Positions 6,853 to 60,441 of a DNA stretch of 64,000 nucleotides are shown here, piece after piece. The stretch covers positions 725,157-789,156 of the forward strand of contig JACEVL010000338.1 in NCBI GenBank assembly GCA_020284085.1. The letters are read 5' to 3'. Source of the stretch: Aporrectodea caliginosa. Its lineage: Eukaryota > Annelida > Clitellata > Crassiclitellata > Lumbricidae. A program made the position numbers and the translations under genes. The notes under the pieces were generated by a model. That model was not told the DNA's origin. It made no database searches and worked only from the letters and a program-made list of their open reading frames with translations. How positions within the stretch are numbered: position 1 is the stretch's first letter; each line of letters opens with the position of its first letter.

Positions 6853-9800
6853 TTAAATGCGAAACTTTCGGAGAAGAAATCTGCGAATGATGTGTTCAAA
6901 CGGAAAATTAGATTTGAGGGCAGAAAATTCAGTCATTGCTTCTTTATACGAAAGATTGCAGTCGATACAACATCTGACTTTCAAATATCTTGCAAGAAAA
7001 TGTCTTCCAAGAAAATAGTGGCAGTTAACAGTGTAACGATATCGAGGAAGACAAGAAAGTACATCCATTTGGGAGGCCATACGATGGGCATCCGACTGTT
7101 CAAACGTTGAATCAGAGGTTAAAATTAATTCAGATTTTCGCAATCTGTCATTCACAAGTGATAAATAATAAAGAAGTTCGTGAAATCCAATCAAAGACTG
7201 TACGTCACTATCGAAATAAGAGTCAATTGGTGGCAGCAATAAAACATTCACCAATAAAGATTCTTTCAAATCGCTTTGGAGATCAGGCTCATGAAGAATT
7301 CGTTCACACAAATGCTGCACTTCATTGTATTGGCCACACTTGTAAAGATACAACGCACGATAGCAGTCAATTGTATTGCACTGGATGCCAAAGTCTTTTC
7401 GGATAGCATTGTAGAATAAAGTCATATTTTCTAGGGCATATTCCATTAGAGCATGAATTACTGTTTCTTTAACTATCAAAGGATTCACACTTTAATAGAC
7501 TCGGTTTCTGTAAATGAATCTGTTCTAGAGTACATGATTTGTTTGGTAACATTGCCATGAGAACCTGACATCATCGAAACAATACATTTCGGTTTAAATA
7601 AAGCCTTCAAATATTCGTCCATAGGAAATGCTGAATCTGGAAATTCATGATGCAAATCTAAACGTATGGATATTCTTTCGGCAGATAATAAAGCTAAATA
7701 ATGAGCAAACACTTCTTGCGAAAGACGCAGATCAAGATACTGCCGCTTTCCGATGTAATGAAGATTATTGTTGGTAATATTTTTTCCAAGTAAATACAAT
7801 CCAACGATTCTAGCGATATCGTCAATAAACAACAAACAACCTGCATTCAGTGTCTCCTTATCCTCTTGGTAAGTCTGATCAACAACTGCCAAACATAAGC
7901 GTATTGCTTGTTGGTATTCTGATGTGGCAAAATGCAGAGCAGCCAGGTACGACAAAGCAGCAGGAGCAATACCGTTGCATTTAGAATCTTCGTATTCTAA
8001 AGCTCTTCTAAGAAACTCTTTTGACATGAGAGATAGTAGTTGAAATTCTGGATTGCTATTTGATCCAGTTAAATATTGCATCAGATCCTGAGCACGGAGG
8101 AATTGAAACCGACTACTTTGGGTTGCGTACGTTTTCGGAAAGTTATGATACTTGGACCTTATAATTCTAGGTTGCGTTGATATTCCTTGGACAAATTCAA
8201 CAAAGAGATTGCTATCCCAGGAAATGTCTCCACATCTTAAACCATATGCAATATGCAAAATATACAGTTGGATGTCATAGTACGTGAAAGAGAAGACGTT
8301 TTGTATTGTTGGAAGATCTGCTGGTCTACCGTTTATTTGTGGGTCAATACATCTTCTATGACATCCAAATTTGAAGCTCTGGCGCAATCCAGAACTGTTC
8401 CCGTTTCTTATTATACGACGACAGCCAAAATGAGATTCTGCAAGCGTGGAAAGAAATAATAAATCGAGTGATTTTGATTCCTTGACTTTCCAAAACTCAA
8501 AGATGGGAAGCATACAGTCCACAAAATGAGGCATTGCTTTCACTGTGCTGCTATAATTGAGATTTCTCCGAATGAATGACTGTATGTAATTTTCCACAAA
8601 CCAATGACCGAGGCTGTCAGAATTTTGGAAATCATTAAGTCGTTTCTCAGTCTTATCAAGGACTGTGTGGCTCGATGGCTCATGAAATAAATTTGCTTCA
8701 GGAATAAAATAGTTCGGGCAGTGTCTCTTCTTTAGCCATTCCGAAAGCTTTTGTAACAACTCACAGCAGATCGTAATAACAGAAGAGGAATTCCACCATT
8801 CGGATGACATCTCTTCACAAGTCCATAACATCAACGTCTTTAAATGATACGTACAGAGAACCTCATCTTCCTTTGGACAATCCTTTTGTATTAATTCTCT
8901 CTTTGCAAAGAATCTCAACAAATGGTAGACGATCTGTTGAATTTGAGTCCAACTCTGAAGTAAAATTACTTCTGCGAATGAAAATGAAAATCTCCACTGC
9001 AGTTTATCGTCTCTGCAAGAACGATGCTGAACATAGACAACATGACAGCCACTGTGCACAACCTCGGAGATTGTTTGAATGGTCGGCCATCCGTTATTCC
9101 TAGGTCGCTGAAGCCAAGCATGGGCTTCTTTAGGCCATTGTGGGCACCACACGCTTCTGACCACATCAGTTCCGGTATTATGATCATCAGGCTTATCTCT
9201 TTGGTGTTTAATGGCTGGACCATTAACGATGCTCTTGCCATGCTTTCCGAATGTAAGAGGGAAATACGAATTTGCAATTTCATCCATATTTAGCGACATG
9301 TAGCCATTTGTAAACTCTGTATGGTTAAGTTCGTACTTTTTATATTTCCAATTATAGTTCATTTTCCCACAAACTCGTAATCGAACAAAACCTGGATGCC
9401 TGTCGTCTGTTTCAATCTTGCAGCACTTTATCGAATCGTCTAAGCCACTCAAATCTAGGCCACTCATATCGTTTGGCAACACTGGAAAGTCGCCACTGAA
9501 GGCCAGTTCATCAGTTTTGGCGATTAAGAGATCAGTGTCGTCAATGCACTTATTGAGCGGTCGGATGTAAAACTCCGCAAGCTGCCACACAAAATCGTGT
9601 AGTCGTTTGAATGTTTTCTTTCTGCACTACTAGGGAACCCAATTAAGTTATGCATGTGATCCGAGATAACAGAAGTGGACTTTGGAAGCAATTGACATGT
9701 GCTAACAATGAATGCAGATGCCATTTCTTCGGTTGATTTATCCGCATATTCCGTCATCCTAAATAGGAAAAACATCTCAATCATAAAACTCATCATCATT

Positions 9801-9883
9801 ATAATTATCGTCATCTGCTGTAGGAGAAGGAACAGAATTCTTGTTATCACCCATATCAGGTGCCAAGCAATCACCTTTATCAC
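6853..9883 (-). pseudogene. Mab-21/cGAS-like nucleotidyltransferase + TPR-like protein, copy A (two frameshifts)
   Basis: This is a near full-length copy of the family whose open members are at 37073-40135 and 57523-60441. It reads in three pieces. The N-terminus is 9524-9883, from a start before MTEYADKS. The nucleotidyltransferase and middle are 7485-9590, and the C-terminus is 6853-7488. The first break is just after the CGS motif near 9583, where one A is missing relative to the intact copy. The second is near 7488, where the 'ETES' coding gains two bases and reads into a stop. Motifs otherwise match the open copies: GS, DDTD, GTDVV, CPQWPKEA, SFSFAE and YHLKTLMLW. It is probably a recent pseudogene, because the remaining frames are undamaged over 600 codons. 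Sequencing error at two homopolymer-like sites cannot be excluded. Confidence 0.85.
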
Positions 9884-10114
9884 TCACAGTTCGACCAATA
9901 ATGCTTACTGGACCGTCCACTTGACCATCTATCTGATGGCGATCTAGAGCGTCACATTCATCACTTTTGATAAGTAACCTTTAATACAATATACAATAAT
10001 TACTAACTCAGGAAACTCAAACTCATTTTAACCCGATAGCTCATCTGAATTTGGCTGTTGCTTTTGCTCTAGAATTTTCCATTCAACTCTGATTTCATTT
10101 AGATAGGTATAATT
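9884..10114 (-). promoter_or_regulatory. Shared 5' flank of Mab-21 copies
   Basis: The 230 bp between copy A and its upstream hAT remnant is closely matched before copies B (33605-33932), C (40136-40374) and D (60442-60810). Shared words include 'tctgatggcgatct' and 'ttgataagtaacctttaatacaatatacaa'. It presumably contains the promoter and transcription start. No convincing TATA box was identified. Confidence 0.4.
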
Positions 10115-10510: not shown

Positions 10511-10568
10511 CGGGCAATTTTTGTATCACTTGAGGGATCATAATTATAATAAATAATAACAATAAATA

Positions 10569-10576
10569 TGACGTCA
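10569..10576. promoter_or_regulatory. Perfect TGACGTCA (CRE/ATF-type) site
   Basis: The palindrome TGACGTCA, followed by 'tgagc', lies about 690 bp upstream of copy A. It recurs with the same flank upstream of copies B (34388-34395) and D (61798-61805), but the corresponding region is replaced upstream of copy C. A role in regulation is inferred only from conservation between duplicates. Confidence 0.3.
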
Positions 10577-17549: not shown

Positions 17550-18882
17550 TTATAAAGTAAAAATAATAGTGGAACCTTGAGGAACACCAAATTCAATGAG
17601 GCGAAATGTCGATACTTTATTATTGCATTGGACCTGCTGTTGTCTATTATTCAGATAATTTTTGAACCAAAGGAGTGGTAACCCTCGAATTCCATCATTA
17701 TCTAATTTTTTCAAAAGGATTTTATGATCTACGGAATCGAATGCTTTTGAAAGGTCGAGAAATATTCCAACAGAATACTCGTTATTTTCAATAGCTTGCG
17801 AAATTTTATCTTGGATATTCAAGAGAGACATGGCAGTTGAATGTCCAGCCTGAAATTCGTGTTGGTTTAAAAATAGAATTTTCATTTTAGTAACGTAGTC
17901 GTACAGTCTATTATACATAGCTCGTTCAATCAGTTTAGAAAAATAAGGCAAAACAGATATGGACCTATAATTGCCTAGTTCAGATTTGTCACCCTGTTTG
18001 TAAATTGGTGTGACTCTGGCTATTTTCAAGGCAGGCGGGACAATTCCAGTGGCAAAATAGGAGTTTATGATTTCCGATAGAGGAGTGGCGAGAAGATTTA
18101 ATATAGCACTATTAGTATATGGGTTAATATCATCAGGGCCAGAGCTATGAGTAAGTTTGAGAGACTGATTAATGGAAATAAGCTCCTCAGGGGTTGTAGG
18201 AATTAGGGCAAAGGAATCAGGAAGAGACATCATATAAGATTGAAAGCTTTTTTGAGAGACCGGAATTTTGTCGGATAGGGTTTGAGCAATGCTCGAGAAG
18301 GTTCATAATAAGAGTTGAATCTTTCAGCCATAGTTTCTGCGTCAGTTATTTTAACACCGTTAATGCATAGTTCATCAATTTTTGTGTTGTTATTGGATGT
18401 GTTAAGAATGGACCTAATAATTTTCCAAGTATGTTTTAAGTCGCTATTATATTTTTGAAATTCTGAGGCATAGTAATTTTTTCGGTTTTAATTCTAAGCG
18501 ATTTGAATTTATTTCTGTAAATAATATACTTCTCTTTATTAGCGGCAGGCGGGTGTTTAATCATTTTAAGGTAGAGTTTTGATTTAGTTCTACATGATTT
18601 TAATAGGCCGCTGGTCATCCATGGCTGCTTATGGGAGTGACGCTTATGTCTACTGCGTGGGAGTAAAGGGAATGCTTTGTCATAAGCTGCTTTGAATAGA
18701 CCAACAAATACGCCGTAGGCAGCAGTAGGACTGTTTTGATTACATAAGTCTAGTACCAATGACCAGTCGATTTCCGCGAGAAGAAATTTTAATTGCTCCA
18801 TATTTCTATCATTTATATTGCGTGAGAGGTAAACGGTAGGTTCAGTGTTTGACAATGGACTAAGGTCAAGATGCATCATCAT
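17550..18882 (-). mobile_element. LINE ORF2 fragment, linker plus RT domain, truncated
   Basis: Two frames (18436-18882 and 17550-18233) join across about 200 bp with frame changes. The first is the linker (IDWSLVLDLCNQNSP, KQPWMTSGLLKSCR). The second is the RT core: FSKLIERAMYNRLYDYV, then FLDLSKAFDSVDHKILL with the motif-A aspartate, then EFGVPQGST before it stops. The YxDD-bearing palm is missing. It is a Jockey-like or related clade; the exact clade was not determined. It is oriented tail-to-tail with the element at 16630-17480. Confidence 0.85.
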
Positions 18883-18894
18883 AATAATATTATC

Positions 18895-19130
18895 ATCATA
18901 AGCATGAGATATTGACGCCAGCTGTTTGACGGCGATGGGTTAGCATAGACGATCTTCATTGTCGTCGGTCATTTGTCAAGTCCACTGGCACTGCTCCCCT
19001 TAGTGTCAGTCCCAGTGATGTTATGTCCTCATTTATATTAGCGTAGTCTGCATATTATATGCATCTATGTGAGTGTAAGGTTAAGCAAATTCGAGATATG
19101 AAGTGGCTAGTTAGTGTGTACTTTTTACAC
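18895..19130 (-). repeat. Dispersed repeat R1, copy 3 (inverted)
   Basis: This is the reverse complement of the R1 copy at 1575-1788, including 'tgttatgtcctcattta' and 'cgagatatgaagtgg'. Together with 20331-20840 it makes a mirror image of 1105-1788, interrupted by the insertion at 19136-20323. Confidence 0.65.
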
Positions 19131-20845: not shown

Positions 20846-21301
20846 ATGACGGAATATGTGGGTAAATCGAATGAAGAATTGGCATCTGCGTTCATCGTTA
20901 GCACATGTCAATTACTTCCAAAGACATTTCCTGCTGTTTCTGATTATATGCATAACTTATTAGGGTCAAAGAGCACTGCACCAGAGAGTTATGCAATTTC
21001 GTGTGGCAGCTTTGCGGAGTTCTATATCCGACCGCTGAATACATGCATTGACGACTTAGATTTCCTAGTCGCCACAACTGATAAGCTGGTCTTCAGTGGG
21101 AACTTTACATTGTTACCAAGTGATAGGAGTGGCCTGGCTGAGACGATCCAGTGCTGTAAGATTGAACCATACGACAGATATCCAGGATTTTTTCGATTAC
21201 GAGTTTTGGGAGACATTAACTATAATTGGAAAAAGAAAAAGTACAAATTTACTGATACAGCTCTTACAAATAAAATAATACGCGTTGCCAAGTATTGGTA
21301 G
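20846..21301 (+). pseudogene. Mab-21/cGAS-like nucleotidyltransferase, N-terminal fragment (copy F)
   Basis: The 151-codon frame begins MTEYVGKSNEELASAF and contains CGSFAEFYIRPLN, then DDLDFLV, then the conserved PGFFRLRVLG and INYNWKKKKY strand region. Similarity to the complete copies ends abruptly after about residue 140, at TNKIIRVAKYW. Everything carrying the third catalytic aspartate, the Mab-21 C-lobe and the TPR-like half is absent. It is the only copy on the plus strand and is clearly diverged from A-D. It is most likely a truncated relic. A short product spanning only half of the nucleotidyltransferase fold would not be catalytic. Confidence 0.75.
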
Positions 21302-23699: not shown

Positions 23700-24809
23700 C
23701 TTAAATTACAGGACTGTAGGCGATCATGCTCGGTACTTAGAACTTGGGTCCATTCTCAATTTACATTTTTTTATCACAGAAAATGAACGATCAGACAAAT
23801 ATTGTTACATTTTAATTATTTTTTTACCAATTTGCTCGTGCCGATAGGGCCTACATTCGAGAAGACATTACCTAAAGGATAAAATAATCTAAGGTCATTT
23901 CAAGGTCAAAAGATCAAAATCAAATGACCATATCTGAGCCAAATGTTATTTTATTTGGGTGATTCTGGGTATTGGCCATTGTTCTTTGATTTTGACCTTT
24001 GACCTTCAAATGACCTTGAAGTAACCCAAGTTCGTTTCAAGGTCAAAAGGTAAAAATAAAAATGGAGAATTGCCATAACACAGAATCACCCAAATAAAAC
24101 AATATTCTGTGTAATGGTCATTGTTCCTTGATTTTGACCTTTGACCTTCAAATGACCTTGGGTTCACCCAAGGTCATTTAAAAGTAAAAAGGTCAACATC
24201 AAGGACCAATGACCATTACACAGAATCAATCAAATAAAACAACATTTGGTTGAGATATGGTCATTTTCTTTTGATTTTGACCTTCTGACCTTGAAATGAC
24301 CTTGGAATATTTTAACCTTTAGGCATTGTCTTCTCGAATGTAGACCATATCGGCATGAGCAAATTGGTATAAGAACAATGAAATGTAATAATATTTGTCT
24401 GAGCTATGGCTATTTCCTCTGATTATCTTCTAAAATTGACCTTTTTGACCTTAAAATAACCTTGGATCGCCTTACATTTGATAACCTTATTTATTATCCC
24501 AGGTAGCCCTTATCTAGATGAGAAACACAAGAAAGAATTAGTTGATTTCAAGAAGTATTGGCTGAGATATGGCCATTTTTCTCTAATTTTTGCTAGATTA
24601 AAATTTTTCTGACCTTGAAATGACCTTGAATTATCCAGAATTTAGCGTCAATATTTTCCCCCGATATAGCCCTCGTTGAGACAAATAGAACAAAGAAGTG
24701 TTCATGCAAATCGGACTATTCGTTCATTTTTTTTGATGAAAAGTGTAAATTGAGAATGGACCCAAGTTCGAAGTCCCGAGGCTGAGCGCCTACAGTCCTG
24801 TAATTTAAG
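23700..24809. mobile_element. Fold-back element with ~110-bp inverted ends
   Basis: The left end 'cttaaattacaggactgtagg' continues through 'aacttgggtccattctcaa' and 'aatgaacga'. The right end is its near-exact inverse ('cctacagtcctgtaatttaag', ending 24809). The arms are therefore about 110 bp and similar. The interior consists of 'ccttgaaatgacctt' and complementary words in both orientations plus 'atttgggtgattctg'-like words, giving a largely palindromic 1.1-kb unit. A truncated relative is at 5560-6435. No coding. Confidence 0.75.
23892..24626. promoter_or_regulatory. Cluster of AGGTCA direct repeats (DR5, DR1, DR2)
   Basis: Perfect half-sites AGGTCA/TGACCT stand as direct repeats spaced by 5 at 23892-23908, 24000-24016, 24142-24158, 24286-24302 and 24610-24626. 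They are spaced by 1 at 23993-24005 and 24135-24147, and by 2 at 24278-24291. DR5 and DR1 are classical binding layouts of RAR/RXR and RXR-type nuclear receptors. All lie in the fold-back element, so binding in vivo is only inferred. Confidence 0.35.
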
Positions 24810-30656: not shown

Positions 30657-33604
30657 CTATTTACTTAGAATACGAAACTTTCGTAGAAGAAATCTGCGAA
30701 TGATTTGTTCAAACGGAAAATTAGATTTGCGGACATAAAATTCAGTCATTGCTTCTTTATACGAAAGATTGCAGTCGATACAACATCTGACTTTCAAATA
30801 TCTTGCAAGGAAATGTCTTCCAAGAAAATAGTGGCAGATAACAGTGTAACGATATAGACGACAACGCGGAAGCACATCCGTTTTGAAGGTCATACCATGG
30901 GCATCCGAGTGTTCAAACGTTGAATCAGGGGTTAAAATTAATTCAGATTTTCGCAATCTGTCATTCACAAGTGATAAATAGTAAAGAATTTCGTTAAGTC
31001 CAATCAAAGACTGTACGTCACTATCGAAATAAGAGTCAATTGGTGGCAGCAATAACACATTCAGTAATGTAGATTCTTTCAAATCGCTTGGCAGATCAGG
31101 CCCATGAAGAATTCGCTCACAAACATCCTGCACCTCATTGTATTGGCCACACTTGTAAAGGTACAAAGCACGATAGCAATCAACTGTATTGCACTGGATA
31201 CCAAAGACTTTTCGGATATTATTGTAGAATGATGCCATATTTTCTAGGGCATATTCCATTAGAACATGAATTACTGTTTCTCTAACTATCAAAGGATTCA
31301 CACTTGTAGACTCGGTTTCTGTAAATGACTCTGTTCTAGAGTACAGGATTTGCTTGGTAGCATTGCCATAACAACCTGACATCGTCGAAACAATATATTT
31401 CGGTTTAAATAAATCCTTCAAATATCTGTCCATAGGAAACGCTGAATTTGGTAATACATGATGCAAATCTAAACGTATGGATATTCTGTCGGCAGATAAT
31501 AAAGCTAAATAATGAGCAAACACCTCTTGCGAAAGACGCAGGTCAAGATACTGCCGCTTGCCGATGTAATGAAGATTATTGATGGTAATATATTTTCCAA
31601 GTGCATACAATCCAACGATACTTGCAATATCGTCAATAAACAACAAACAGCCTGCATTCAGTGTCTCCTTATCCCCCTGGTAAGTCTGATCAACAACTGC
31701 CAAACATAAGCGTGTCGCTTGTTTGTATTCTGATGTGGCGAAATGCAGAGCAGCCAGGTAGGACAAAGCCGCAGGAGCAATACCGTTGCATTTAGAATCT
31801 TCGTATTCTAAAGCTCTTCTAAGAAACTCTTTTGACATGAGAGCCAGTAGTTGAAATTTTGGACGGCTACTTGATCCAGTTAAATTTTCCATGAGTCCCT
31901 GAGCACGTAGGAATTGAAACCGACTACTTTGGGTTGAATACGTTTTCGGAAAGTTATGATACTTAGACCTTATTAGTCTAGGTTCCGTTGATATTGCTTG
32001 GACAAATTCAATAAAGAGATTGCTATCCCATGAAATCTCTCCACATCTTAATCCATATGCAGTATGCAAAATATACAGTAGGATGTCATAGTACGTGAAA
32101 GCGAAGACGTTTGTATTGTTGGAAGATCTGCTGGTCTACCGTTTATGTTGGGATCAATACGTTTTACATGACATCCAACTTTTAAGCTCCGGCGCAATCC
32201 AGAACAGTACCCGTCTCTTATTATACGACGACAGCTATCCTGAGCTTCTGCAAACGTGGAAAGAAATAATAAATCGAGTGATTTTGATTCCCTGACTTTC
32301 CAAGACTCAAAGAGAAGAAGCATGTAATCCACAAAATGAGGCATCACTGTGCTATTGAACATGCGATTTTTCCGAATGAATGACTGTATGTAATTATCCA
32401 CAAACCAACAACAAAGAATGCCAGAATTTTGGAATTCGTTTAGTCGTTTCTCAGTCTTATCAAGGACTGTGTGGCTCGATGGCTTATGAAATAAATTTGA
32501 TTCAGGAATAAAATAGTTTGGGCAGTGCCTCTTCTTGAGCCATTCCGAAAGCCTTTGTAACAGCTCACAGCAGATCGTTATAACAGAAGAGCAATTCCAC
32601 CGTTCCGACGACATCTTTTCACAAGTCCATAACATCAGCGTCTTTAAATGATAAGTACAGAGAACCTCATCTTCCTTTGGACAATTCTTTTGTATCAATT
32701 CTCTCTTTGCAAAGAATCTCAACAAATGGTAGACGATCTGTTGAACTTGAGTCCAACTCTGAATTAATATTACTTCTGCGACTGAAAATGAAAATATCCA
32801 CTGGCGTTTATCGTCTCAGCAAGAACGATGCTGAACATAGACAACATGACAGCCACTGTGCACAACCTCGGAGATTGTACGAATGGTCGGCCATCCGTTA
32901 TTCCTAGGTCGGTGTAGCCAGGCTTGGGCTTCTTTAGGCCATTGTGGGCACCACACGCTTACGACAATATCAGTTCCGGTATTATGATCATCAGGCATAT
33001 CTATTTGGTGTATAATGGCTGGACCATTAACGATTCTCTTGCAATCCGTTTCGAGTTTAATAGGGGCATAGTCATTTGCTATAATATCCATATTTAGCGC
33101 CATGTAGCTATTTGTAAACTCTGCATGTTTAAGTTCGTACTTTTTATATTTCCAATTATAGTTCATTTTTCCCAAACCGCGTAATCGAACAAAACCTGGA
33201 GGACTGTCGTATGTTTCAATCTTCCAGCACTTTATCGAATCGTCTAAGCAACTCAAATCTAGGCCACTCAAATCGCTTGGCAACACTGAAATGTCGCCAC
33301 TGAAGGCCAGTTCATCAGCATTGGCGATTAAGAGATCAACGTCGTCAATGCATTTATTGAGCGGTCGGATATAGAACTCCGCAACGCTACCACACACAAT
33401 CAAGTAGTCGTTTGAATATTTTCTTTCTGCACTACTAGGACACCCTATTAAGTTATGCATGTGATCCGAGATAACAGAAGTAGACTTTGGAAGTAATTGA
33501 CATGTGCTAACAATGAATGCAGATGCCATTTCTTCGGTTGATTTATCCGCATATTCCGTCATCCTAAATAGGAAAAACATCTCAATCATAAAACTCATCA
33601 TCAT
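30657..33604 (-). pseudogene. Mab-21/cGAS-like nucleotidyltransferase + TPR-like protein, copy B (stop and frameshift)
   Basis: This full-length relative of the open copies is broken twice. After QHRSC near 32816 the arginine codon AGA of other copies is TGA, a stop inside the Mab-21 domain. Near 32060-32100, after LPTIQ, a single T is missing, which shifts the frame until the next piece (30657-32069). The N-terminal piece (32816-33604) keeps CGSVAEFYIRPLN, DDVDLLI, GTDIV and CPQWPKEAQAWLHRP. The C-terminal piece has both TPR-like hairpins and ends RKFRILSK. The upstream in-frame hydrophobic leader seen in copies A and C is disrupted here by a short deletion. Because the early stop would remove most of the C-lobe, I call it a pseudogene. 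High similarity to the intact copies suggests recent loss. Confidence 0.85.
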
Positions 33605-37072: not shown

Positions 37073-40000
37073 CTATTTACTTAGAATAGGAAATTTTCGC
37101 AGAAGATATCTGCGAATGATGTGTTCAAACAGAGAATTAGATTTGCGGGCAGCAATTTCAGTCATTACTTCTTTTAACGAAAGATTGCAGTCGATACAAC
37201 ATCTGACTTTCAAATATCTTGCAAGGAAATGTCTACCAAGAGAATAGCGGCAGCTGGTAGAGAGGCGATATTTACGAATACACCCTAGCACATCCCTTCT
37301 GAAGGTCATACTATGGGCATTCCAGTGTTCAAACGTTGAATCAGATGTTAAAATTAATCCGTTTTTTCTCAATACGTCATTCACAAGTGACAAATAATGA
37401 AGAAGTGTGTGAAATCCAATCAATGACTGTACGTCACAATCGAAAAAAGAGTCAAGTGGTGGCAGCAATAAGACATTCACCAAAAACAATTTTTTAAAAT
37501 CGCCTTGCAGATCAGGCTCGTGAAGAATTCGCTCACACAAATGCTGCACTTCATGGTATTGGCGACATTTGTAAAGATACAGCGCACGATAGCAGTCAAT
37601 TGTGTTGCACTGGATGCCAAAGTCTTTTCGGATCACATTGTAGAATGATGCCATATTTTCTAATGCATATTCCATTAGAACATGAATTACTGTTTCTTTA
37701 ACTACGAAAGGATTAACACTTTTAGACTGGTTTTCTGCAAATGCATCTGTGGTACAATACGAGATTTGCTTGTAAGCATTACCATGAGAACCTGACATCA
37801 TCGAAGGAATACATTTGGGTTTCAATAAAGACTTCAAATCTTCGTCCATAGGAAATGCTGAATCTGGTAATTCATGACGCAAATCTAAACGTTTGAATAT
37901 TCTTTCGGCAGATAATAAAGCTAAATAATGGGCTAACACCTCTTGCGAGAGACGCAGATCAAGATAAAGCCGCTTGCCGATGTAATGAAGATCATTATTT
38001 TCAGTAATCTTCTTATGAAGTACATACAATCCAACGATTCTGGCGATATCGTCAATAAACAACAAGCAGCCTGCATTCAGTATCTCCTTATCCTCTTGGT
38101 AAGTCTGATCAACAACTGCCAAACATAAGCGTATTGCTTGTTTGTATTCTGATGTGGCGAAATGCAGAGCAGCCAGGTAGGACATAGCCGCAGGAGCAAT
38201 ACCGTTGCAGTTAGAATCTTCGTATTCTAAAGCTCTTCTAGGAAAATCTTTTGACATGAGAGCCATTAGTTGAAATTCTGGACTGCTACTTGACCCAGTT
38301 AAAGTTTGCATGAGATCCTGAGCACGGAGGAATTGAAACCGACTACTTTGGGTTACGTACATTTTCGGAAAGTTGTGATACTTAGACCTTACAATTCTAG
38401 GTTGCGTTGATATTGCTTGGACAAATTCAACAAATAGACTTCCATCCCATGAAATCTCTCCACATCCTAAACCATATGCAATATGCAAAATATACAGTAG
38501 GGTGGCATAGTACTTAAAAGAGGAGACGTTTTGTATTGTTGGAAGATAAATTTCTTGTAAACCGTTTATATCGGGGCAAATATATCTTAACTGACATCCA
38601 ATTTGGAAGCTATTGCGCAATCCAGAACTGTCCCCGTTTCTCATCATACGACGGCAGCTACCATTAGATTCTCTAAACGTGGTAAGAAATAATAAAGCGA
38701 TTGAATATGATTCCCTGACTTCCCAAGACTCAAAGAGTGCAAGCATGAAGTCCAGAAAATGAGGCAATGCTTTCACTGTGCTGGTAAACTTGATATTTCT
38801 CTGAATGAATGACTCTATGTAATTTTTCATAAACCAATGACAGAGGGAACCAGAATGTAGGAATTCATTTAGTCGTTTCTCAGTCCTATCAAGGACTGTG
38901 TGTCTCCGTGGCTCATGAAATAAATTTGCTTCAGGAATAAAATAGTTTCGGCAGTGCCTCTTCTTTAGCCATTCCGTAAGGCTCTGTAACAACTCACAGC
39001 AGATCGTAATAACAGAAGAGGTATTCCACCATTCCGACGACATTTCTTCGCAAGCCCATAACATCAACGTCTTTAAATGGTACTTGCAGAGAACCTCATC
39101 TTCCTTTGGGCAATCCTTTTGTATCAATTCTCTTTTTGCAAAGAATCTCAGCAGATGATAAATAAGCTGCTGAATTACAGTCCAACTCTGAAGTAAAATT
39201 ACTTCTGCGAATGAAAATGAAAATCTCCACTGGTATTTATCGTCTCTGCAAGAACGATGCTGAACGTAGACGACATGACAGCCACTTTGCACAACCTCGG
39301 AGATTGTATTAATGGTCGGCCATCCGTTATTCCTAGGCCGCTGAAGCCAAGATTGTGCTTCTTTAGGCCATTGTGGGCACCACACGCTTCTAACGACATC
39401 AGTTCCGGTAATATGAGCAGAAGGCCTTTCTCTTTGGTGTTTAATGGCTGGACCAGTAACGATTCTCCTGCCACGCGTTTCGAACATAACATACGCATTT
39501 ACAATACTATCCATATTTAGCGACAGGTAGTCATTTGTAAGCTCTGCATGATTGAGTTCGTACGTTTTATATTTCCAATTATAGTTCATTTTCCCCAAAC
39601 CTCGTAATCGAACAAAACCTGGATACCTGTCGTCTGTTTCAATCTTCCAGCACTTTATCGAATCCTCTAAGCCACTCATATCTAGGCCACTCAAATCTAG
39701 GCCACTCATATCGTTCGGCAACACTGGAAAGTCGCCACTGAAGGCCAGTTCATCAGTTTTGGCGATTAAGAGATCAGCGTCGTCAATGCATGCATTGAGC
39801 GGTCGGATATAGAACTCCGCAAAGCTGCCACACAAAATCGAGTAATCGTTTGAATATTTTTTGTCTGCACTACTTTCGAATTTAAGTAAGTTATGCATGT
39901 GATCCGAGATAGCAGAAGTGGACTTTGGAAGAAATTGACATGTGCTAACAATGAATGCAGATGCCATTTCTTCGGTTGATTTATCCGCATAATCCGTTAT

Positions 40001-42190: not shown

Positions 42191-42976
42191 ACTAAACTTC
42201 TTTTACAATTCAACAAATTATATGTGATGCTTCATGTCTATTGTTCTGGAGGCGAATCTTCCGGGGGCGAATCTTCTCGGGAGCGAATTGTCCGAAACCC
42301 GACTTTTACACTGTTGAATGATCTTCAGATGCAGTAACTCGAGAGGCCTCTGAAGGAGCCGATGCCATTGCCGCTTCGGTACCGCATAAATAAGCCTACA
42401 AATGTGACTAACTACTGTTAGTGAAACAACAGCCGCATTTTAGATGATTCCAAGATGAATGCAGTTTGAATGTTTATCGGCAAATGTAGAAAATACCACC
42501 TCCATCACTAACCTCTGTGGTATACATGTGGTATATATTTTGGTGTCCATGTCTCTTCTAACGTCCTCTTACTGTCCTATTTAATTTGTCCGTGCTGTGC
42601 AATGTTTAAACTGCGCCTTAGCTAAGCAACTGACTCAGCATACGATTCTGATATTATATCTCCTTGAGCTTTGATTGGTCACATTTCAATTACTGGAACA
42701 TCAACGTCAGACGCACTATTAGTAACCCAGATAAGTAACTACTTGTCACGGTAGAAGCCACTAAGCTGATATAGTAGCCTAAGCTATTGTGTTTACTGGC
42801 CCACCATTAAACTATGACGAATAACGCCCGATGAACAAAAACAATCAGTTACTGTTTGACTACATGTAGAATTGTAGATGTCGTTTATGAGAACCAGCCG
42901 AAACTTTTCCAACGGAGAGGCAAAACCATATTGCACAAAAATCACTTTTTAAGGAGTCATACATGCATAGGCCTAC

Positions 42977-43210
42977 ATACACACATACATACATACATAC
43001 ATACATACATACATGCATACATACATACATACATACATACATACATACATACATACATACATACATACATACATACATACATACATACATACATACATAC
43101 ATACATACATACATACATACATACATACATACATACATACATACATACATACATACATACATACATACATACATACATACATACATACATACATACATAC
43201 ATACATACAT
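42977..43210. repeat. (ATAC)n microsatellite
   Basis: About 58 units with a single 'gcat' interruption. It is open in several frames on both strands, giving spurious tetrapeptide-repeat ORFs. A shorter (ATAC)n tract is at about 48105-48190. Confidence 0.98.
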
Positions 43211-43643: not shown

Positions 43644-45030
43644 TTAGCGGTCATCCTCACCGGTCAATTGCATAAAGGTGCTTCGAAATGCAACAGCATT
43701 AAACCGCTGCGTGCAAATAGAAAGACGCTGAAACAAGCGTGCTGTCTCCTGCGGTTCCCCCGAAACAATGGTCAAACGCCGACCTAGTTCTGATAGGAAC
43801 TCCCTGCCCTGGGCATTGATGGGACCCATGGTTTCCAAAGCTACTGGAATGAAGTCATAGGTGCTGGGAATTTCTGAGTACTTGGTGATCTTCCTGTCGG
43901 CAGCCATTTCTGCAGCTGCTCCCGGCGTTATAGAAGTCAGATGTATATATGAGGTTGCACACGTGTGTATACTGGTGGCATCCCAAGTCATATATTTTCC
44001 TCTTGACCACGGGATCAACGTTGCTCCATCTGGTCTTTTGCCATCACTTCGGAGCAGACCTGTTGGTTCTTTGGTGCTCGGAACTTCAGCTCGCTGGAGA
44101 GCCCTCCAGATGATGTCATTCATTGTGAAGTGCCGGATGGTTCTCCCTCCAGACAGTCTGCAGACCAGTCCATGATGTCTTCCGTTGTCCGTTGTCACAC
44201 CGCATTGGCACTGGTGTGGTTCGCAGAGGTCAAGGCCCAATCGTAGGCCTATCGCCACCCGGACAGCTTCATCGGTGAGACACAGTCCACAGGAAGCGAT
44301 CGGAAACGCAGCCATCCAGTCTCCTGCATGGGCGGAAGTTACTGCCCCCAATCTAGCCATGTTGAGCGGATCCGTCGCCAAGGCCCACACTTCTGATATT
44401 TCCTTCTCAATCAATGGTCTGTCCCAAACCTTTTGAGCCGTGATGGTCTCTAACGCACCGCTCTGGAGCGTGGTACCACGCGCAGACAGAATTTCATCTT
44501 TGAAGGCGTCTTGCCAGTCCTCCGATTGAAGAATAGCGGATCCGAGATTTCTGGCTGATGCAGCTGATGCAAGATATGCGGAAGAAGCCAGCATCTGAAG
44601 CCTTCTGATTCCCAATCCTCCTTCTCTAATCGGTAATGTCGCCTGTGTCCATTGGATGTCGCTAAGTCTGATGTTAACGATTGCCTCCAATCCAGATCTC
44701 ATCTGTGCGTCCATTATTCTCAACAGGGGGTGTTCCCAGCACTGTGTCGTTCTCAGCAGGAAGGTTAACCTTGCCGCCCCGAAGCACGATCTTATGAGCA
44801 TCAGGGCTCCCTGTGTTGGCAGTCTCCTCATGTCTACCATTGCCTGCTCCAATTTCTCTGAATGGTCCTGCAATGCCTTATCCAGCGCTGTTCCTTTGCA
44901 GAGAGGCGCACCCAGCAAACTTATTGAGTCCTTGGTAACTCGTTTGAAGTCCTCAAATGTCTTCTCTTCAAATTCCTCTCCAGCCAAAATTTCGCACTTC
45001 TCTCTATTCAGGTGTAAGCCCAGGGTCGAC
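43644..45030 (-). mobile_element. Non-LTR retrotransposon C-terminal part with nuclease-like domain
   Basis: The 447-codon frame, extending upstream in frame as STLGLHLNREKCEIL to 45030, is the post-RT part of a retroelement polyprotein. Residues 50-130 (RRLPTQGALMLIRSC, CWEHPLL, RSGLEAIVNI, REGGLGIRR) are the usual linker. A C-x-C...HH...C zinc-like cluster lies at 260-276. DGKRPDGATLIPW at 316-327, then WDAT at 335-338 and conserved K/KY near 366-370, resemble a PD-(D/E)xK endonuclease. Then PVALETMG. The RT core is missing: the frame runs into the trinucleotide tract at 45031. The family is recalled from invertebrate genomes; clade assignment is uncertain. The frame itself has no stops, so it is young or conserved. 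Confidence 0.75.
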
Positions 45031-45107
<77 letters not shown>

Positions 45108-45170: not shown

Positions 45171-45934
45171 TCGATAAATCGAAGCAACAATCCGGGAAAC
45201 AGTTTATTAGTGTTATACTTACCTCCAATCCTCCATACTTACTTACAAGGAGCTGATGGTGGACTCAGAACACCTGCAAGCTGTGAACAGAGGGCACGAG
45301 TTAACGTTATGATACCCGCTTATAGCTGCTGCAGTCCTTGATCGAACCAAAATAAGCGACAGAATGGCTACATCTGTATTAGCAACAGTTGTTCAATATC
45401 TTGGTCATGATGTCCAGGAGTTAGATATCAACGATTTGTCAATTCACAGAGCTACTAACAGGGCACAGCTGCCTAACAAGCTCAAATTGCTTCACATTGC
45501 TTCACAGCTTAAAGAACAGTTTCAAGTAAATGTCTCTCTCTCTCTCGAGGTCTACTGGGATGGTAAACTCCTGCAACACCTCACTGGGAAAGAACATGTT
45601 GATCGATTGCCAGTAATTGTTGCGGGAGCTGGAGGGAACCGGTTGCCCGGTGTTCCAAAATTGACTTCCAGTACTGGTGAAGCTCAGGGACCCGTTGCAG
45701 CCTGTTTTATAGAAAATTGGGGCCTTTTCGACCGCATTGCTTCCATATGTTTTGATACCACTTCCATTAACACAGGATTTAGAACTGACTCTTGTGTTCC
45801 GCTGGAACAGAAACTCGGGAAGAAGCTTTTGAACTTAGGCTGGCAAGTCGGCAGCATATAATGGAGTTAATTCCAGCTGCAGCCTTTCTCGATAGCTTTG
45901 CAATTACCTCAGGGCAAGACATTGCCATCTTTAA

Positions 45935-46943: not shown

Positions 46944-47732
46944 TGCATCTTCAAATCATGATTTCCACTTCCTTCAGCTCTTGAACCAGCGCGAAACAGT
47001 GATCAAATCCATTGCAAATGCCACGCGAAAGAAATTTGCTGGTTACCTTTGGCATCTTATTGAAGAGCTCATTGGCTTTGCCTGTTTTGATGCGACAGTA
47101 CCTGGTAAGGGCAATTAATGAGAAGGACGGTATAGAAGAGCCTGCAAACGCGTCAAAATTGAAATAAGGAAATGCCAAAACATGCCTTCAGGTCTTCATG
47201 ACAAAATGCATCTTCAAATCATGATTTCCACTTCCTTCAGCTCTTGAACCAGCGCGAAACAGTGATCAAATCCATTGCAAATGCCACGCGAAAGAAATTT
47301 GCTGGTTACCTTTGGCATCTTATTGAAGAGCTCATTGGCTTTGCCTGTTTTGATGCGACAGTACCTGGTAAGGGCAATTAATGAGAAGGACGGTATAGAA
47401 GAGCCTGCAAACGCGTCAAAATTGAAATAAGGAAATGCCAAAACATGCCTTCAGGTCTTCATGACAAAATGCATCTTCAAATCATGATTTCCACTTCCTT
47501 CAGCTCTTGAACCAGCGCGAAACAGTGATCAAATCCATTGCAAATGCCACGCGAAAGAAATTTGCTGGTTACCTTTGGCATCTTATTGAAGAGCTCATTG
47601 GCTTTGCCTGTTTTGATGCGACAGTACCTGGTAAGGGCAATTAATGAGAAGGACGGTATAGAAGAGCCTGCAAACGCGTCAAAATTGAAATAAAGAAATG
47701 CCAAAACATGCCTTCAGGTCTTCATGACAAAA
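46944..47732 (+). repeat. Three tandem 263-bp copies of the TX-gene tail
   Basis: Units start at 46944, 47207 and 47470 and are almost identical; I noticed one A/G difference in the third ('aaataaagaaa'). Each unit encodes SSNHDFHFLQLLNQRETV to TVPGKGN and stops, so only the first is in frame with the gene. Minus-strand 75-codon ORFs in each unit are shadows. This is either a recent local triplication or an assembly artefact. From 47760 to 49140 only AT-rich sequence and a short (ATAC)n tract are seen. Confidence 0.95.
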
Positions 47733-54027: not shown

Positions 54028-55305
54028 TTAACTTGTTAAAATGCAAAACTTTCGTAGAATAAATCTACGAATGATGTGTTCAAACGGAAGACTAGTTTTC
54101 TGAACAGTAAATTCAGTCAGTGCTACTTTGCATGGAATATTGCAGTCGATACAACATCTGACTTTCAAGTTATCTTGCAAGAAAATGTCTTCCAAGAAAA
54201 TAGTGACATTTAATGGAGTAATCATATTGAAGAAGAACCACAAGATCAAACTTATCATAGTACACGTGTTGGGCAAACAGGTGTTCAAACGTTGACTCGT
54301 CATTTGACTCAATTTCACCCATATCGTTATTCAGAGGTGATAAATAATAGAAAATTGTGTGAAATCCAAGCAAAGACTGTACGTCTCTATCGAAATAAGA
54401 GTCAAGCGGTGGCAACAACAAAACATTCGCAAATGAAAATTCCTTCAAATCGCTCAGCAGATCGGGCTCTTGAAGAATTCGTTCACATAAGTGCAACACA
54501 TCATCGTATTGGCGAAGCTTGTAAAGGTACAAAGCACGATAGCAATCAACTGTTTTGCACTGGATTCCAAAGTCTTTGCGAATCACATGGTAGAATGATG
54601 TCAAATTTTCTAGGGCATATTCCAATAAAACACGAATTAGTGTTTCCATGAAAGAATTCACATCTGTAGCCTCCGCCTCTGTTAATGAATCTGTTCTGCG
54701 GTAAACGATCTGTCTGGAACCATTGAAATGAGTATCTGACTTCAACGCAGCAACACTTTTTGGTTTTAATAAAACCTTCAAATAATCGTCCATAGGAAAT
54801 GCTGATACTGGTAATTCATGATAAAAATCGAAATGTTTGGTTATTCTTTCGAAAAATAATGCAGTTAAATAATAAACAAACACTTCTGGTGAAAGACGCA
54901 GATCAAGATAAATCCGCCTGCCAGTGTAATGAAGATTTTTGTCAGTAATCTTTCTGTGAAGCACACAAAATCCAACGATTCTTGCGATATCGTCAATAAA
55001 CATCAAGCAACCGGCATTCAGTGTTTCTTTATCCTGTTGAGGAGTATGACATGCGAGAACTGCCATGCAGAGACGTATTGCTTGTTGGTATTCTGATGTT
55101 GCAAAATAGAGTGCAGCTAGATAGGCCAAAGCTGCAGGACCAACTCCGTTAAATTGTGGTTCGTCATATTCTAAAGCTTTTTTCATAACCTCTTTTGACA
55201 CGAGAGACATTAGCTGAAATTCTGGACGGCTATTTGATCCGGTTAAATTTTCCATGAGATCCTGAGCACGCAGAAATTGAAACTGATTCCTGTGTGCTGT
55301 GTACA
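54028..55305 (-). pseudogene. Mab-21-family C-terminal half, copy E (truncated, frameshifted)
   Basis: Only the part corresponding to about residues 600-1020 of copy C remains. The frame 54170-55348 has QFQFLRAQDLMENLTGSNSR, the first TPR-like hairpin (YLAALYFATSEYQQAIRLC), LMFIDDIARIVGF, CYRALYLYKLRQYDDVLHLC and GRHFLAR. One extra base near 54172 ends that frame, and LKVRCCIDCNIPCKVALTEF continues in 54028-54318. The whole nucleotidyltransferase domain is missing. Homology stops at 55305, where SINE body sequence begins. This copy is more diverged from A-D than those are from each other, so it represents an older branch. Its 3' flank matches the family only to about 53938. Confidence 0.8.
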
Positions 55306-55420
55306 CTTTCGGTGGGAAGATCAGACGGAGAGGGGGAGGACTGGTCACCTACCCTTATATGCTGATTATAAGAAAATCAATTGCTTGTCACTTTATACCC
55401 ATGACTGCCTCTCAGATTGG
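55306..55420 (+). mobile_element. SINE body fragment
   Basis: 'cggtgggaagatcagacgg', 'aggactggtcacc' and following words match the non-tRNA body of the SINE at 4965-5270 (5130-5200). The tRNA-like head is absent. It forms the break point of Mab-21 copy E. Confidence 0.5.
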
Positions 55421-57522: not shown

Positions 57523-60441
57523 TTAAATGAGAAACTTTCGTAGAAGAAATCTGCGAATGATGTGTTCAAACGGAAAATTAGATTTGCGGGCAGAAAATTC
57601 AGTCATTGCTTCTTTATACGAAAGATTGCAGTCGATATAACATCTCACTTTCAAATATCTTGCAAGGAAATGTCTTCCAAGGAAATAGTGGCAGTTATCA
57701 GAGTAACGATATAGACGAAAACGCGAAAGTACATCCGTTTTGAAGGTCGTACGATGGTCATCCGAGTGTTCAAACGTTGAATCAGGGGTTAAAATTAATT
57801 CAGATTTTCGCAATCTGTCATTCACAAGTGACAAATAATAAAGAAGTTCGTGAAGTCCAAGCAAAGACTGTACGTCACTATCAAAATAAGAATCAAGTGG
57901 TGGCAGCAATAAGACATTCACCATAGAAGATTCTTTCGAATCGCTTTGCAGATCAGGCTCATGAAGAATTCGCTCACACAAATGCTGCACTTCATTGTAT
58001 TGGCCACACTTGAAATGGTACAAAGCACGATAGCAGTAAATTGTGTTGCATTGGATGCCAAAGTCTTTTTGGATCACATTGTAGAATAGAGTCATATTTT
58101 CTAGGCCATATTTCATTAGAGCATGAATTACTTTTTCTTTAGCTATCGAAGGATTCACACTTGTAGGCTCGGTTTCTGTAAATGAATCTGTTGTACAATA
58201 CGGCATTTGTTTGGTAACATTACCATAACAACCTGACATCATCGAAACAATACATTTCGGTTTAAATAAAGCCTTCAAATATTCGTCCATAGGAAATGCT
58301 GAATCTGAAAATTCATGATGGAAAACTAAATGTTTGGATATTCTTTCGGCAGATAATACAGTTAAATATTGAGCAAACACTTCAGGTGAGAGACGCAGAT
58401 CCAGATACTGCAGCTTGCCGATATAATGAAGATTATTGTTGGTAATATTTTTTCCAAGTACATACAATCCAACAATTCTGGCGATATCGTCAATAAACAA
58501 CAAACAACCTGCATTCAGTGTCTCCTTGTCCTCTTGGTAAGTCTGATCAACAACTGCCAAACATAATCGTATTACTTGTTGGTATTCTGATGTGGCAAAG
58601 TGCAGAGCAGCCAGATAGGACAAAGCTGCAGTAGCAATACCGTTGCATTTAGAATCTTCGTATTCTAAAGCTCTTCTAAGAAACTCTTTTGACATGAGAG
58701 CCAGTAGTTGAAATTCTGGAATGCTATTTGATCCAGTTAAATGTTGCATCAGATCCTGAGCACGGAGGAATTGAAACCGACTACTTTGGGTTGCGTACAT
58801 TTTCGGAAAGTTATGATAGTTAGACCTAATTATTCTTGGTTGCGTTGAAATTGCTTGGACAAATTCAACAAAGAGACTACCATCCCATGAAATCTCTCCA
58901 CATCCTAAACCATATGCAGTATGCAAAATATACAGTAGGATATCATAGTACGTGAAAGAGAAGATGTTTTGTATTGTTGGAAGAGCTGGTCTACCGTTTA
59001 TTTCGGAGTCAATACATCTCATATGACATCCAACTTTGAAGCGCTGGCGCAATCCACAACAGTTCCCGTTTCTTATTATACGACGACAGCCATCATGAGA
59101 TTCTGCAAACGTGCGAAGAAATAATAAATCGAGTGATCTTGATTTCTTGATTTTCCAAAACTCAAAGAGGGGAAGCATGTAGTCCATAAAATGTGGCTTT
59201 CCTTTCACTGTGCATTGGAGTTTTCTCCGAACGAATAGCAGTATGTAATTTTCCACAAACCATTGACAAAGAATGCCAGAATTTTGGAAATCATTAAGTC
59301 GTTTCTCAGTCTTATCAAGGACTGTGTGGCTTGATGGCTGATTAAATAAATTTGCTTCAGGAATAAAATAGTTCGGGCAGTGCCTCTTCTTCAGCCATTT
59401 CGAAAGCCTTTGTAACAGCTCACAGCAGATTGTTATAACAGAAGAGCAATTCCACCATTCCGACGACATCTCTTCGCAATTCCATAGCATCAGCGTCTTT
59501 AAATGATAAGTACAGAGAACCTCATCTTCCTTTGGACAATTCTTTTGTATCAATTCTTTCTTTGCAAAGAATCTCAGCAAATGATAGACAATCTGTTGAA
59601 TTTGAGTCCAACTCTGAAGTAAAATTACTTCTGCGAACGAAAATGACAATCTCCACTGTAGTTTATCGTCTCTGCAAAAGCGATGCTGAACATAGACAAT
59701 ATGACAGCCACTGTGCTCAACCTCGGAGATTTTACGAATGGTCGGCCATCCGTTATTCCTAGGGCGCTGAAGCCAAGCTCGGGCTTCTTTAGGCCATTGA
59801 GGGCACCACACGCTTCTGACCATATCAGTTCCGGTATTATGATCATCAGGCTTATCTCTTTGGTGTTTAATGGCTGGACCAGTAACGATTCTCTTGTGAT
59901 CCGTTCCGAATGAAGAAGGGAAATACGATTTTGCAACTTCATTCATATTTAGCGTCATGCAGCTATTTGTAAACTCTGCATGGTTTAGTTCGTACTTTTT
60001 ATATTTCCAATTATAGTTCATTTTCCCCAAACCTCGTAATCGAACAAAACCTGGATACCTGTCGTATGTTACTATCTTGCAGCATTTTATCGAATCGTCT
60101 AAGCCACTCAGATCTAGGCCACTCATATCGTTCGGCAACACTGGAAAGTCGCCACTGAAGGCCAGTTCATCACCGTGGGCGATTAAGAGATCAATGTCGT
60201 CAATGCATGCATTGATCGGTCGTATATAAAACTCCGCAGCGCTACCACACACAATCGAGTAGTCGTTTGAATATTTTCTTTCTGCACTACTTGGGAACCC
60301 AATTAAGTTATGCATGTGATCCGAAATAACAGAAGTGAACTTTGGAAGCAATTGACATGTGCTAACAATGAATGCAGATGCCATTTTTTCGGTTGATTTA
60401 TCCGCATATTCCGTCATCCTAGATATAAAAAAACATCTCAA
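57523..60441 (-). CDS. Mab-21/cGAS-like nucleotidyltransferase with TPR-like C-terminal half, copy D (intact)
   Basis: The 972-codon frame is open throughout. The likely start is either residue 1 or MTEYADKS at residue 9 (codon at 60415-60417), which is the conserved family start. The nucleotidyltransferase motif is G66-S67, D82-I-D84 and a third acid D206 in GTDMV. CPQWPKEARAWLQRP (213-227), SFSFAEVILLQSW and YHLKTLMLW identify the Mab-21 C-lobe. The rest is the same helical extension as copy C with YLAALHFATSEYQQVIRLCL and CYRALYHFKCGQYNEVQHLC. The hydrophobic leader of copy C is absent, so the family core does not need it. The frame ends RKFLI, three residues before copies B and C. It is predicted cytosolic, with no signal peptide. 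The role as a cGAS-like sensor is inferred from the intact triad and gene multiplication. Confidence 0.87.
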   Translation of the reverse strand: MRCFFISRMTEYADKSTEKMASAFIVSTCQLLPKFTSVISDHMHNLIGFPSSAERKYSNDYSIVCGSAAEFYIRPINACIDDIDLLIAHGDELAFSGDFPVLPNDMSGLDLSGLDDSIKCCKIVTYDRYPGFVRLRGLGKMNYNWKYKKYELNHAEFTNSCMTLNMNEVAKSYFPSSFGTDHKRIVTGPAIKHQRDKPDDHNTGTDMVRSVWCPQWPKEARAWLQRPRNNGWPTIRKISEVEHSGCHIVYVQHRFCRDDKLQWRLSFSFAEVILLQSWTQIQQIVYHLLRFFAKKELIQKNCPKEDEVLCTYHLKTLMLWNCEEMSSEWWNCSSVITICCELLQRLSKWLKKRHCPNYFIPEANLFNQPSSHTVLDKTEKRLNDFQNSGILCQWFVENYILLFVRRKLQCTVKGKPHFMDYMLPLFEFWKIKKSRSLDLLFLRTFAESHDGCRRIIRNGNCCGLRQRFKVGCHMRCIDSEINGRPALPTIQNIFSFTYYDILLYILHTAYGLGCGEISWDGSLFVEFVQAISTQPRIIRSNYHNFPKMYATQSSRFQFLRAQDLMQHLTGSNSIPEFQLLALMSKEFLRRALEYEDSKCNGIATAALSYLAALHFATSEYQQVIRLCLAVVDQTYQEDKETLNAGCLLFIDDIARIVGLYVLGKNITNNNLHYIGKLQYLDLRLSPEVFAQYLTVLSAERISKHLVFHHEFSDSAFPMDEYLKALFKPKCIVSMMSGCYGNVTKQMPYCTTDSFTETEPTSVNPSIAKEKVIHALMKYGLENMTLFYNVIQKDFGIQCNTIYCYRALYHFKCGQYNEVQHLCERILHEPDLQSDSKESSMVNVLLLPPLDSYFDSDVQSLLGLHELLYYLSLVNDRLRKSELILTPDSTFEHSDDHRTTFKTDVLSRFRLYRYSDNCHYFLGRHFLARYLKVRCYIDCNLSYKEAMTEFSARKSNFPFEHIIRRFLLRKFLI

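What the first reader, a model, noticed from the sequence alone, without database searches (positions are those of the whole stretch)
6853..60441. Local array of Mab-21/cGAS-like genes with a ~600-residue TPR-like extension
Seven copies or fragments of one gene family lie within 60 kb, two fully open. Each open product joins a Mab-21 nucleotidyltransferase (CPQWPKEA, SFSFAE and YHLKTLMLW signatures) to a long helical half. Known cGAS/OAS/MAB21L proteins usually end after the C-lobe, at about 350-520 residues, so the fusion resembles a sensor with its own effector or scaffold domain. Multiplication, pseudogenes and divergent branches together fit birth-and-death evolution typical of immune receptors. 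The immune role is inferred.
Basis: partly seen in the sequence, partly recalled or inferred. Interest (0 to 1): 0.9.

Follow-up and report, generated by a model that had tools for sequence, protein, structure and literature searches.

The report
Expanded cGAS-like genes with TPR-like tail
This stretch of an animal genome carries a small array, partly broken, of genes for cGAS-like immune enzymes fused to a long, probably helical-repeat tail; the same genome holds scores of open copies and several loci for STING, the usual receptor of such enzymes, which suggests a very large innate immune repertoire.

Summary
Six loci of one family lie at 6856-60417; two are open over ~965 residues. Pfam Mab-21 and Mab-21_C score over their cut-offs, and the nearest solved structure by sequence is cGAS-like receptor 1. 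The window belongs to a 1.1-Gb genome. Two capped searches list 197 distinct Mab-21 loci there, a lower bound, 84 with open frames of 900-1100 aa. The catalytic pattern GS...DxD...D is kept in 41-43 of 42-43 long-class sequences. The extension is shared by the 41 long copies fetched. It seems built from a weakly TPR-like unit of about 100 aa, two in the ~960-aa class and one in a shorter class, on moderate profile evidence. Residues 366-490, at the junction, evolve fastest. Twelve or 13 STING ligand-binding-domain loci are present. Most likely these are cGAS-like receptors with a TPR-like regulatory or sensing half, multiplied by segmental duplication. cGLR-TPR fusions and >200-gene cGLR radiations are already published (PMC9980059): a new variant of a known kind. 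No usable structure model was obtained; activity, ligand and immune role are untested.

The parts
57526..60417 (-). Copy F: intact cGLR-like gene, 964 codons, single coding exon
   Evidence: Open frame; Mab-21_C E 4.6e-15, Mab-21 E 5.7e-6; full-length relatives genome-wide
59323..60417 (-). Copy F nucleotidyltransferase part, residues 1-365 (GS 58-59, D74, D76, D198)
   Evidence: Pfam; PDB profile match to cGLR1 8gjy, E 7.9e-25 over profile positions 155-368; motif conservation
60190..60246 (-). Copy F activation-loop GS and first two presumed catalytic acids D74/D76
   Evidence: S59, D74, D76 in 42 of 42 ungapped rows, G58 in 41 of 42; assignment by motif
59824..59826 (-). Copy F third presumed catalytic acid D198
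   Evidence: 43 of 43 rows; aligned with an Asp of cGLR1 8gjy by HMMER
58948..59322 (-). Copy F fast-evolving junction, residues 366-490
   Evidence: dN/dS 1.04-1.72 in all 6 pairs of A, C, D, F; pooled 0.91 over 15 disjoint pairs against 0.30-0.33 in residues 191-365
58444..58701 (-). Copy F TPR-like unit 1, about residues 573-658
   Evidence: Profile self-comparison (weak); residues 591-691 match the tail of the short class, E 8.2e-5, probability 61%
57832..58152 (-). Copy F TPR-like unit 2, about residues 756-862
   Evidence: Profile self-comparison (weak); residues 796-870 match the tail of the short class, E 7.1e-5, probability 63%
37076..40000 (-). Copy D: open frame of 975 codons from the family start position; that codon is ATA
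30660..33562 (-). Copy C: full-length pseudogene (one stop, one frameshift)
6856..9757 (-). Copy A: full-length pseudogene (two frameshifts)
54034..55312 (-). Copy E: C-terminal fragment of a divergent branch (about 60% identity), homology stops at 55312 in all four comparisons
20846..21292 (+). Copy B: inverted N-terminal fragment (about 57% identity)
60418..60437 (-). Candidate splice acceptor directly before the start of copy F (T-rich, ending TAGG)
   Evidence: Same position has (T/C)AG directly before ATG in 24 of 43 long-class rows against 44 of 1239 ATGs in the window

Best explanation
These are cGAS-like receptor genes whose cyclase domain is followed by a TPR-like half, multiplied by segmental duplication into a genome-wide repertoire. 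Shown by sequence: the Mab-21 core, kept catalytic residues, a conserved extension, a fast-evolving junction, many open copies, and multiple STING ligand-binding-domain loci in the same genome. Supported moderately: the repeated TPR-like unit. Inferred mechanism: the TPR-like half and the variable junction bind, or gate access to, an infection-derived or host ligand. Binding releases the N-terminal cyclase, which makes a cyclic dinucleotide read by one or more STING proteins. Copies gained by duplication diversify at the junction, and some decay.
For: Mab-21 and Mab-21_C in 43 of 43 aligned long-class proteins at E up to 0.1. Profile matches to cGLR1 8gjy (E 7.9e-25), MB21D2 (3e-18) and cGAS (2.5e-7). 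Catalytic positions kept in 41-43 of 42-43. All 41 fetched long-class loci align to F, 37 of them over at least 940 of its 964 residues. Extension repeat; the only PDB hit to the extension with the 43-row profile is a designed helical repeat protein at E 0.1. dN/dS 0.30-0.33 at residues 191-365 and 0.47-0.56 at 491-800, against 0.91 at 366-490; 14 of 15 disjoint pairs show a higher non-synonymous proportion there than in the core. 197 listed loci on 114 contigs, 87 of 197 within 50 kb of another. 20 STING_LBD exon matches over cut-off, 12 or 13 loci by my grouping; Li et al. report one STING in 88% of animal genomes and 3-10 in some with extreme cGLR radiation (PMC9980059, passage).
Against: No structure: the model failed. 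TPR assignment is sub-threshold, with other families hitting as weakly. The repeat has low probability in self-comparison (hhalign probability 1.3%; 80-residue windows up to 29%). The spacing between second and third acid, 102-126 residues in 42 rows, lies outside the 50-90 of the published cGLR criterion, and the residue before GS is C in the rows printed, not Q/T. The N-lobe was not aligned to canonical sequences by profile comparison. Two of the 20 STING exons hold a stop, and the control genomes rang in 0 of 14. No expression, enzymatic or infection data. dN/dS near 1 can be relaxed constraint.
Confidence: 0.57

Rival explanations
1. Nucleic acid is sensed by the cyclase domain itself, as in cGAS and insect cGLRs; the TPR-like half only localises or oligomerises the enzyme and carries no ligand specificity.
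For: Characterised cGLRs are activated by dsRNA or dsDNA (PMC9980059, passages; that the enzyme domain does the binding is recalled). Residues 191-490 carry net positive charge on average.
Against: The positive charge is modest (+4.1 for 191-380, +4.6 for 381-490) and residues 1-190 are acidic (-7.6). The fastest-changing segment lies after the cyclase, though residues 61-190 also reach 0.81.
Confidence: 0.23
2. A non-enzymatic Mab-21 scaffold that boosts an IKK/TBK1-type kinase, the extension being the protein-binding part.
For: Shrimp Mab21 proteins bind IKK-epsilon and raise antiviral signalling without making cGAMP (PMC12928593, abstract and outline).
Against: The catalytic pattern is almost invariant among sequences 32-76% identical to F, which a pure scaffold would not need.
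Confidence: 0.11
3. A passenger gene of a transposable element or virus, copied with it, without host immune role.
For: Very many dispersed copies with one coding exon; a reverse transcriptase remnant and palindromic, foldback-like repeats beside copies A and B (5882-6417 and 23791-24402).
Against: Copies A, C, D and F share 3.8-5.0 kb with different end points, and the palindromic repeats do not flank C, D or F in that output. A candidate splice acceptor is kept upstream. No relative in viral contigs, phages or prokaryote genomes by the searches run, which reach close relatives only. Coding constraint is clear. I made no dedicated search for target-site duplications.
Confidence: 0.05
4. A developmental Mab21L-type family expanded for non-immune reasons.
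For: Same Pfam domains as Mab21L1/2.
Against: The genome has separate genes that look Mab21L-like by eye (L001, L002, L005), and the extended classes branch apart from them and from a canonical cGLR pair (support 89). Scores of fast-changing copies are unlike developmental genes.
Confidence: 0.04

Closest known systems
Animal cGAS-like receptors (cGLRs), including the TPR-bearing architecture of Li et al. 2023 (PMC9980059)
   Same: Mab-21 core, GS and acid triad, multi-gene radiation, STING present and multiplied, TPR-type appended domain reported for some
   Different: Second-to-third acid spacing 102-126 instead of 50-90; C instead of Q/T before GS in the rows printed; probably two repeat units in the long class; fast-evolving junction. 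Whether the published TPR-cGLRs are this family could not be checked (supplementary tables not available here).
cGLR1 structures 8gjy and 8gjw, MB21D2 7lt1
   Same: Profile positions from about 155-198 to 357-368 align at E 7.9e-25, 1.6e-10 and 3.2e-18
   Different: Those chains are 355-464 residues long and match only in the cyclase part
Shrimp Mab21 proteins LvMab21-1 to -3 (PMC12928593, abstract and outline only)
   Same: Mab21 family with an antiviral role
   Different: Reported to act without making cGAMP; whether they keep the triad or have an extension was not checked
Mab21L1/2 (developmental)
   Same: Pfam Mab-21 domains
   Different: No such extension as I recall; genes that look of that type are separate in this genome

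Membership tests
[quoted passage not shown]
   Mab-21 and Mab-21_C in 43 of 43 at E up to 0.1; over cut-off in D, F and A. In F the Mab-21 match covers only profile positions 122-196
cGLR (criteria as printed in PMC9980059) | G[S/G] activation loop | tested here: met
   G58 41 of 42, S59 42 of 42 ungapped rows; the stricter h[QT]GS form is not met in the rows printed, where C precedes GS
cGLR (criteria as printed in PMC9980059) | [DE]h[DE] 8-20 residues after GS | tested here: met
   D74 and D76 42 of 42; 14 residues between S59 and D74 in F; the middle residue was not counted over all rows
cGLR (criteria as printed in PMC9980059) | Third acid 50-90 residues after the second | tested here: not met
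   D198 in 43 of 43 but 102-126 residues away in 42 rows. So I call this a cGLR-like variant, not a cGLR by the letter
cGLR (criteria as printed in PMC9980059) | Predicted structural homology to cGLR/CD-NTase | tested here: inconclusive
   AlphaFold2 on window rows only: pLDDT 28
cGLR (function) | Makes a nucleotide second messenger on ligand binding | not testable with these tools
   Needs protein
TPR proteins | TPR model match over curated cut-off | tested here: not met
   Best TPR_1 15.4 bits against 27.8, E 0.016 (copy E); 3 of 43 members, best E 0.044; hence 'TPR-like' only
Mab21L developmental proteins | Grouping with Mab21L-type sequences | tested here: not met
   Long class is one side of a branch (SH-aLRT 100), apart from L001, L002, L005, whose label is by eye

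The most novel reading that the evidence does not exclude
The genome runs a large receptor repertoire in which one constant cyclase is joined, through a diversifying 125-residue junction, to a TPR-like reading half. Each copy would recognise a different protein or other non-nucleic-acid ligand, and all would report through cyclic dinucleotides to a dozen or so STING proteins: a cyclic-dinucleotide counterpart of NLR or plant R-gene repertoires.
Probability: 0.25. Interest if true: 0.88.

Novelty: new variant of a known kind. Interest (0 to 1): 0.52.

Why it matters
Most known cGLRs carry no appended domain (87% in PMC9980059). Here a family with a conserved, probably partly duplicated appended half and a fast-evolving junction has scores of open copies, in a genome with multiple STING loci. 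That makes it possible to ask directly whether cGLRs can recognise ligands through an appended domain and whether copies pair with particular STINGs. The long spacing between catalytic acids also means that a published search criterion, applied to the letter, may miss such families.

Tried and rejected
Structure: AlphaFold2 on ten window rows gave pLDDT 28 and pTM 0.21, so no fold search was made on it. I did not send alignment A2 (with loci from the fetch from genomes) to structure prediction, because its stated list of allowed sources does not name them; the second job was not used.

Giant open frames of 2397 and 2427 aa looked like multi-domain fusions, but the fetched stretches L009 and L010 hold 3500 and 3785 N; set aside as runs of N. 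The ORF listing printed no ORF for L009, L010 and L012 although the script found a 922-aa frame in L012; I used scripts for those loci.

dN/dS above 1 at residues 366-490 in the window pairs looked like positive selection. Over 15 disjoint pairs the pooled value is 0.91, and the scan-corrected permutation on F against D is 27 of 500, so I claim fast evolution, not proven positive selection. The region was chosen after looking at F against D; that pair is one of the 15, and without it 13 of 14 pairs agree. The F-D Fisher test (p 0.003) is post hoc.

Four of the 41 fetched 'long' frames are not complete against F: L012 starts at residue 77, L044 at 50, L029 and L051 end at 874 and 884. L012 and L044 were kept in A2 with their odd starts.

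A zinc-binding reading of the near-invariant C238, H239, H245, C248 was set aside: it lies before the WRLSFS strand, unlike the cGAS zinc thumb as I recall it, and the last Cys is missing in printed short-class proteins such as L060.

Retrocopy origin: set aside because of upstream homology and the candidate acceptor. Transposon carriage: different end points. One search reported no inverted repeats of 150 nt or more, yet one search shows imperfect palindromes at 5882-6417 and 23791-24402; one search's ungapped search missed them. Host phylum: the haemocyanin domain PF14830 gave 0 matches, but the control rang nowhere, so no conclusion; a cox1 search did not complete. Rfam and tRNA scans of the window were empty.

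Full report
What is in the window. Six loci of one gene family lie between 6856 and 60417: two open (D, F), two full-length but broken (A, C), two partial (B, inverted; E, divergent). Pfam Mab-21_C and Mab-21 exceed their cut-offs in D, F and A. The nearest solved structures by sequence are cGAS-like receptor 1, then MB21D2 and Mab21L1. Copy D has ATA at the family start position.

How the copies arose. A, C, D and F share 3.8-5.0 kb in pairwise matches, including about 0.56-0.87 kb upstream and 0.27-1.4 kb downstream, with different end points; C and F share a further 1.3-kb block downstream. This fits segmental duplication better than a transposon. Palindromic repeats lie beside A and B only. 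A (T/C)AG directly before the ATG in 24 of 43 long-class rows, against 44 of 1239 ATGs in the window, suggests a 5' non-coding exon and one coding exon; the rows are related, so they are not independent draws, and the other 19 of 43 rows do not show it in this form (F and D have TAGG).

The whole genome. The window is G000:C337:725157-789156 of a 1.098-Gb assembly. A Mab-21 family search scored 150 of 917 candidates, all 150 over cut-off; the 14 control genomes rang in 0. A search with copy F scored 47 of 2072 candidates. Joined, 197 distinct loci on 114 contigs, 87 of 197 within 50 kb of another. 44 of 150 have open frames of 900-1100 aa, and 40 of 47 have at least 900 aa without a stop. The lists are capped, so these are lower bounds, and they include genes without the extension (L001, L002, L005, L011). 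I fetched 41 of the 44 long-frame loci; all 41 align to F with 30-60% identity, 37 over at least 940 residues.

The enzyme half. In 43 long-class sequences (F, D and 41 others) S59, D74 and D76 are kept in 42 of 42 ungapped rows, G58 in 41 of 42, D198 in 43 of 43. D198 is aligned by HMMER with an Asp of cGLR1 8gjy. That D74 and D76 are the first two catalytic acids rests on the motif; profile comparison with five canonical sequences of this genome aligned only the part from residue 207 on. The distance D76-D198 is 102-126 residues in 42 rows, longer than the 50-90 of the published criterion (PMC9980059, passages).

The extension. In D, F, A and E no Pfam domain other than the Mab-21 pair passes its cut-off, and in the 43 members no other family reaches E 0.001. 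Profile self-comparison gives a weak repeat, residues 573-658 against 756-862 (E 0.04, probability 1.3%); windows of 80 residues from the same two places give the best off-diagonal matches, probability up to 29%. A second class (21 sequences used, open frames 548-798 aa) has a shorter tail that matches residues 796-870 and 591-691 of the long class (E 7.1e-5 and 8.2e-5, probabilities 63% and 61%). This supports, moderately, one unit in the short class and two in the long class. Against PDB the extension finds only a designed helical repeat protein at E 0.1. A 19-residue hydropathy peak of 1.71 at residue 636 of F holds charged residues; a membrane segment is neither shown nor excluded. The cyclase tree puts the 43 long sequences on one side of a branch (SH-aLRT 100) and all 64 extended sequences apart from five canonical ones (support 89); it is a quick tree with 35 of 66 inner branches weak.

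Selection. Between window copies dN/dS at residues 366-490 is 1.04-1.72 in six of six pairs of A, C, D, F, which are not independent and include broken copies. Over 15 disjoint pairs it is 0.91, with 0.81 at 61-190, 0.63 at 1-60, 0.30-0.33 at 191-365 and 0.47-0.65 beyond 490; 14 of 15 pairs have a higher non-synonymous proportion there than in the core, F-D being one of them. Fast evolution at the junction is shown; positive selection is not.

Downstream partner. STING_LBD (PF15009) gives 20 exon matches over cut-off from 34 of 34 candidates. By position and strand I group them into 12 or 13 loci, five in an array on C385; two exons hold a stop. The control genomes rang in 0 of 14, so there is no positive control, but all 20 scores pass the curated cut-off. 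Li et al. report one STING in 88% of animal genomes and 3-10 in some with extreme cGLR radiation (passage).

Reading. The best account is a cGLR-like cyclase with a TPR-like regulatory or sensing half, in a duplicating immune repertoire that reports to STING. The steps ligand binding, product and STING pairing are inferred. Rivals are direct nucleic-acid sensing with a passive tail, a non-enzymatic scaffold as in shrimp (PMC12928593, abstract), mobile-element carriage and a developmental role.

What is known. TPR-bearing cGLRs and radiations above 200 genes are in print (PMC9980059, section 5 read). Full-text searches for Mab-21 or cGLR with TPR or tetratricopeptide terms (one search found no paper) listed no other paper that I could recognise as describing this architecture. 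Of the listed papers I looked into PMC9980059, PMC10732462, PMC6321704 and PMC9334734 (passages) and PMC12928593 (abstract and outline); the rest I saw only as listings, and the library lacks most subscription journals. The host species is unknown to me.

Noticed in passing
G000:C385:183381-297102, also C15, C174, C525, C1889, C1927: Twelve or 13 STING ligand-binding-domain loci by my grouping, five in one array; more than the 3-10 reported for radiated genomes if all are working genes, but two exons hold a stop.
   Followed up: partly
L011 (G000:C98:2040000-2049900): Two very similar canonical cGLR-type frames in tandem (GS...DLEFDVM pattern), without extension.
   Followed up: partly
window 17550-18302: Reverse transcriptase fragment (RVT_1, E 8.4e-18); the neighbouring frame 18436-18939 has no Pfam match but looks like part of the same remnant by eye.
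   Followed up: no
window 5882-6417 and 23791-24402: Imperfect palindromes of about 0.6 kb (75% and 80% identity to their own reverse complement), related to each other; foldback-like elements, one just downstream of copy A.
   Followed up: no
window 46944-47732: Three tandem copies of a 263-bp unit, 99% matching.
   Followed up: no
window 42974-43210: Long TACA microsatellite, 59 copies.
   Followed up: no
window 43644-45035 and 45313-45861: Open frames of 463 and 182 aa without Pfam match at E 0.01; look like transposon-derived proteins by eye.
   Followed up: no
F residues 237-248 (window 59674-59709): Near-invariant G-C-H-x5-H-x2-C in the long class, function unknown.
   Followed up: partly
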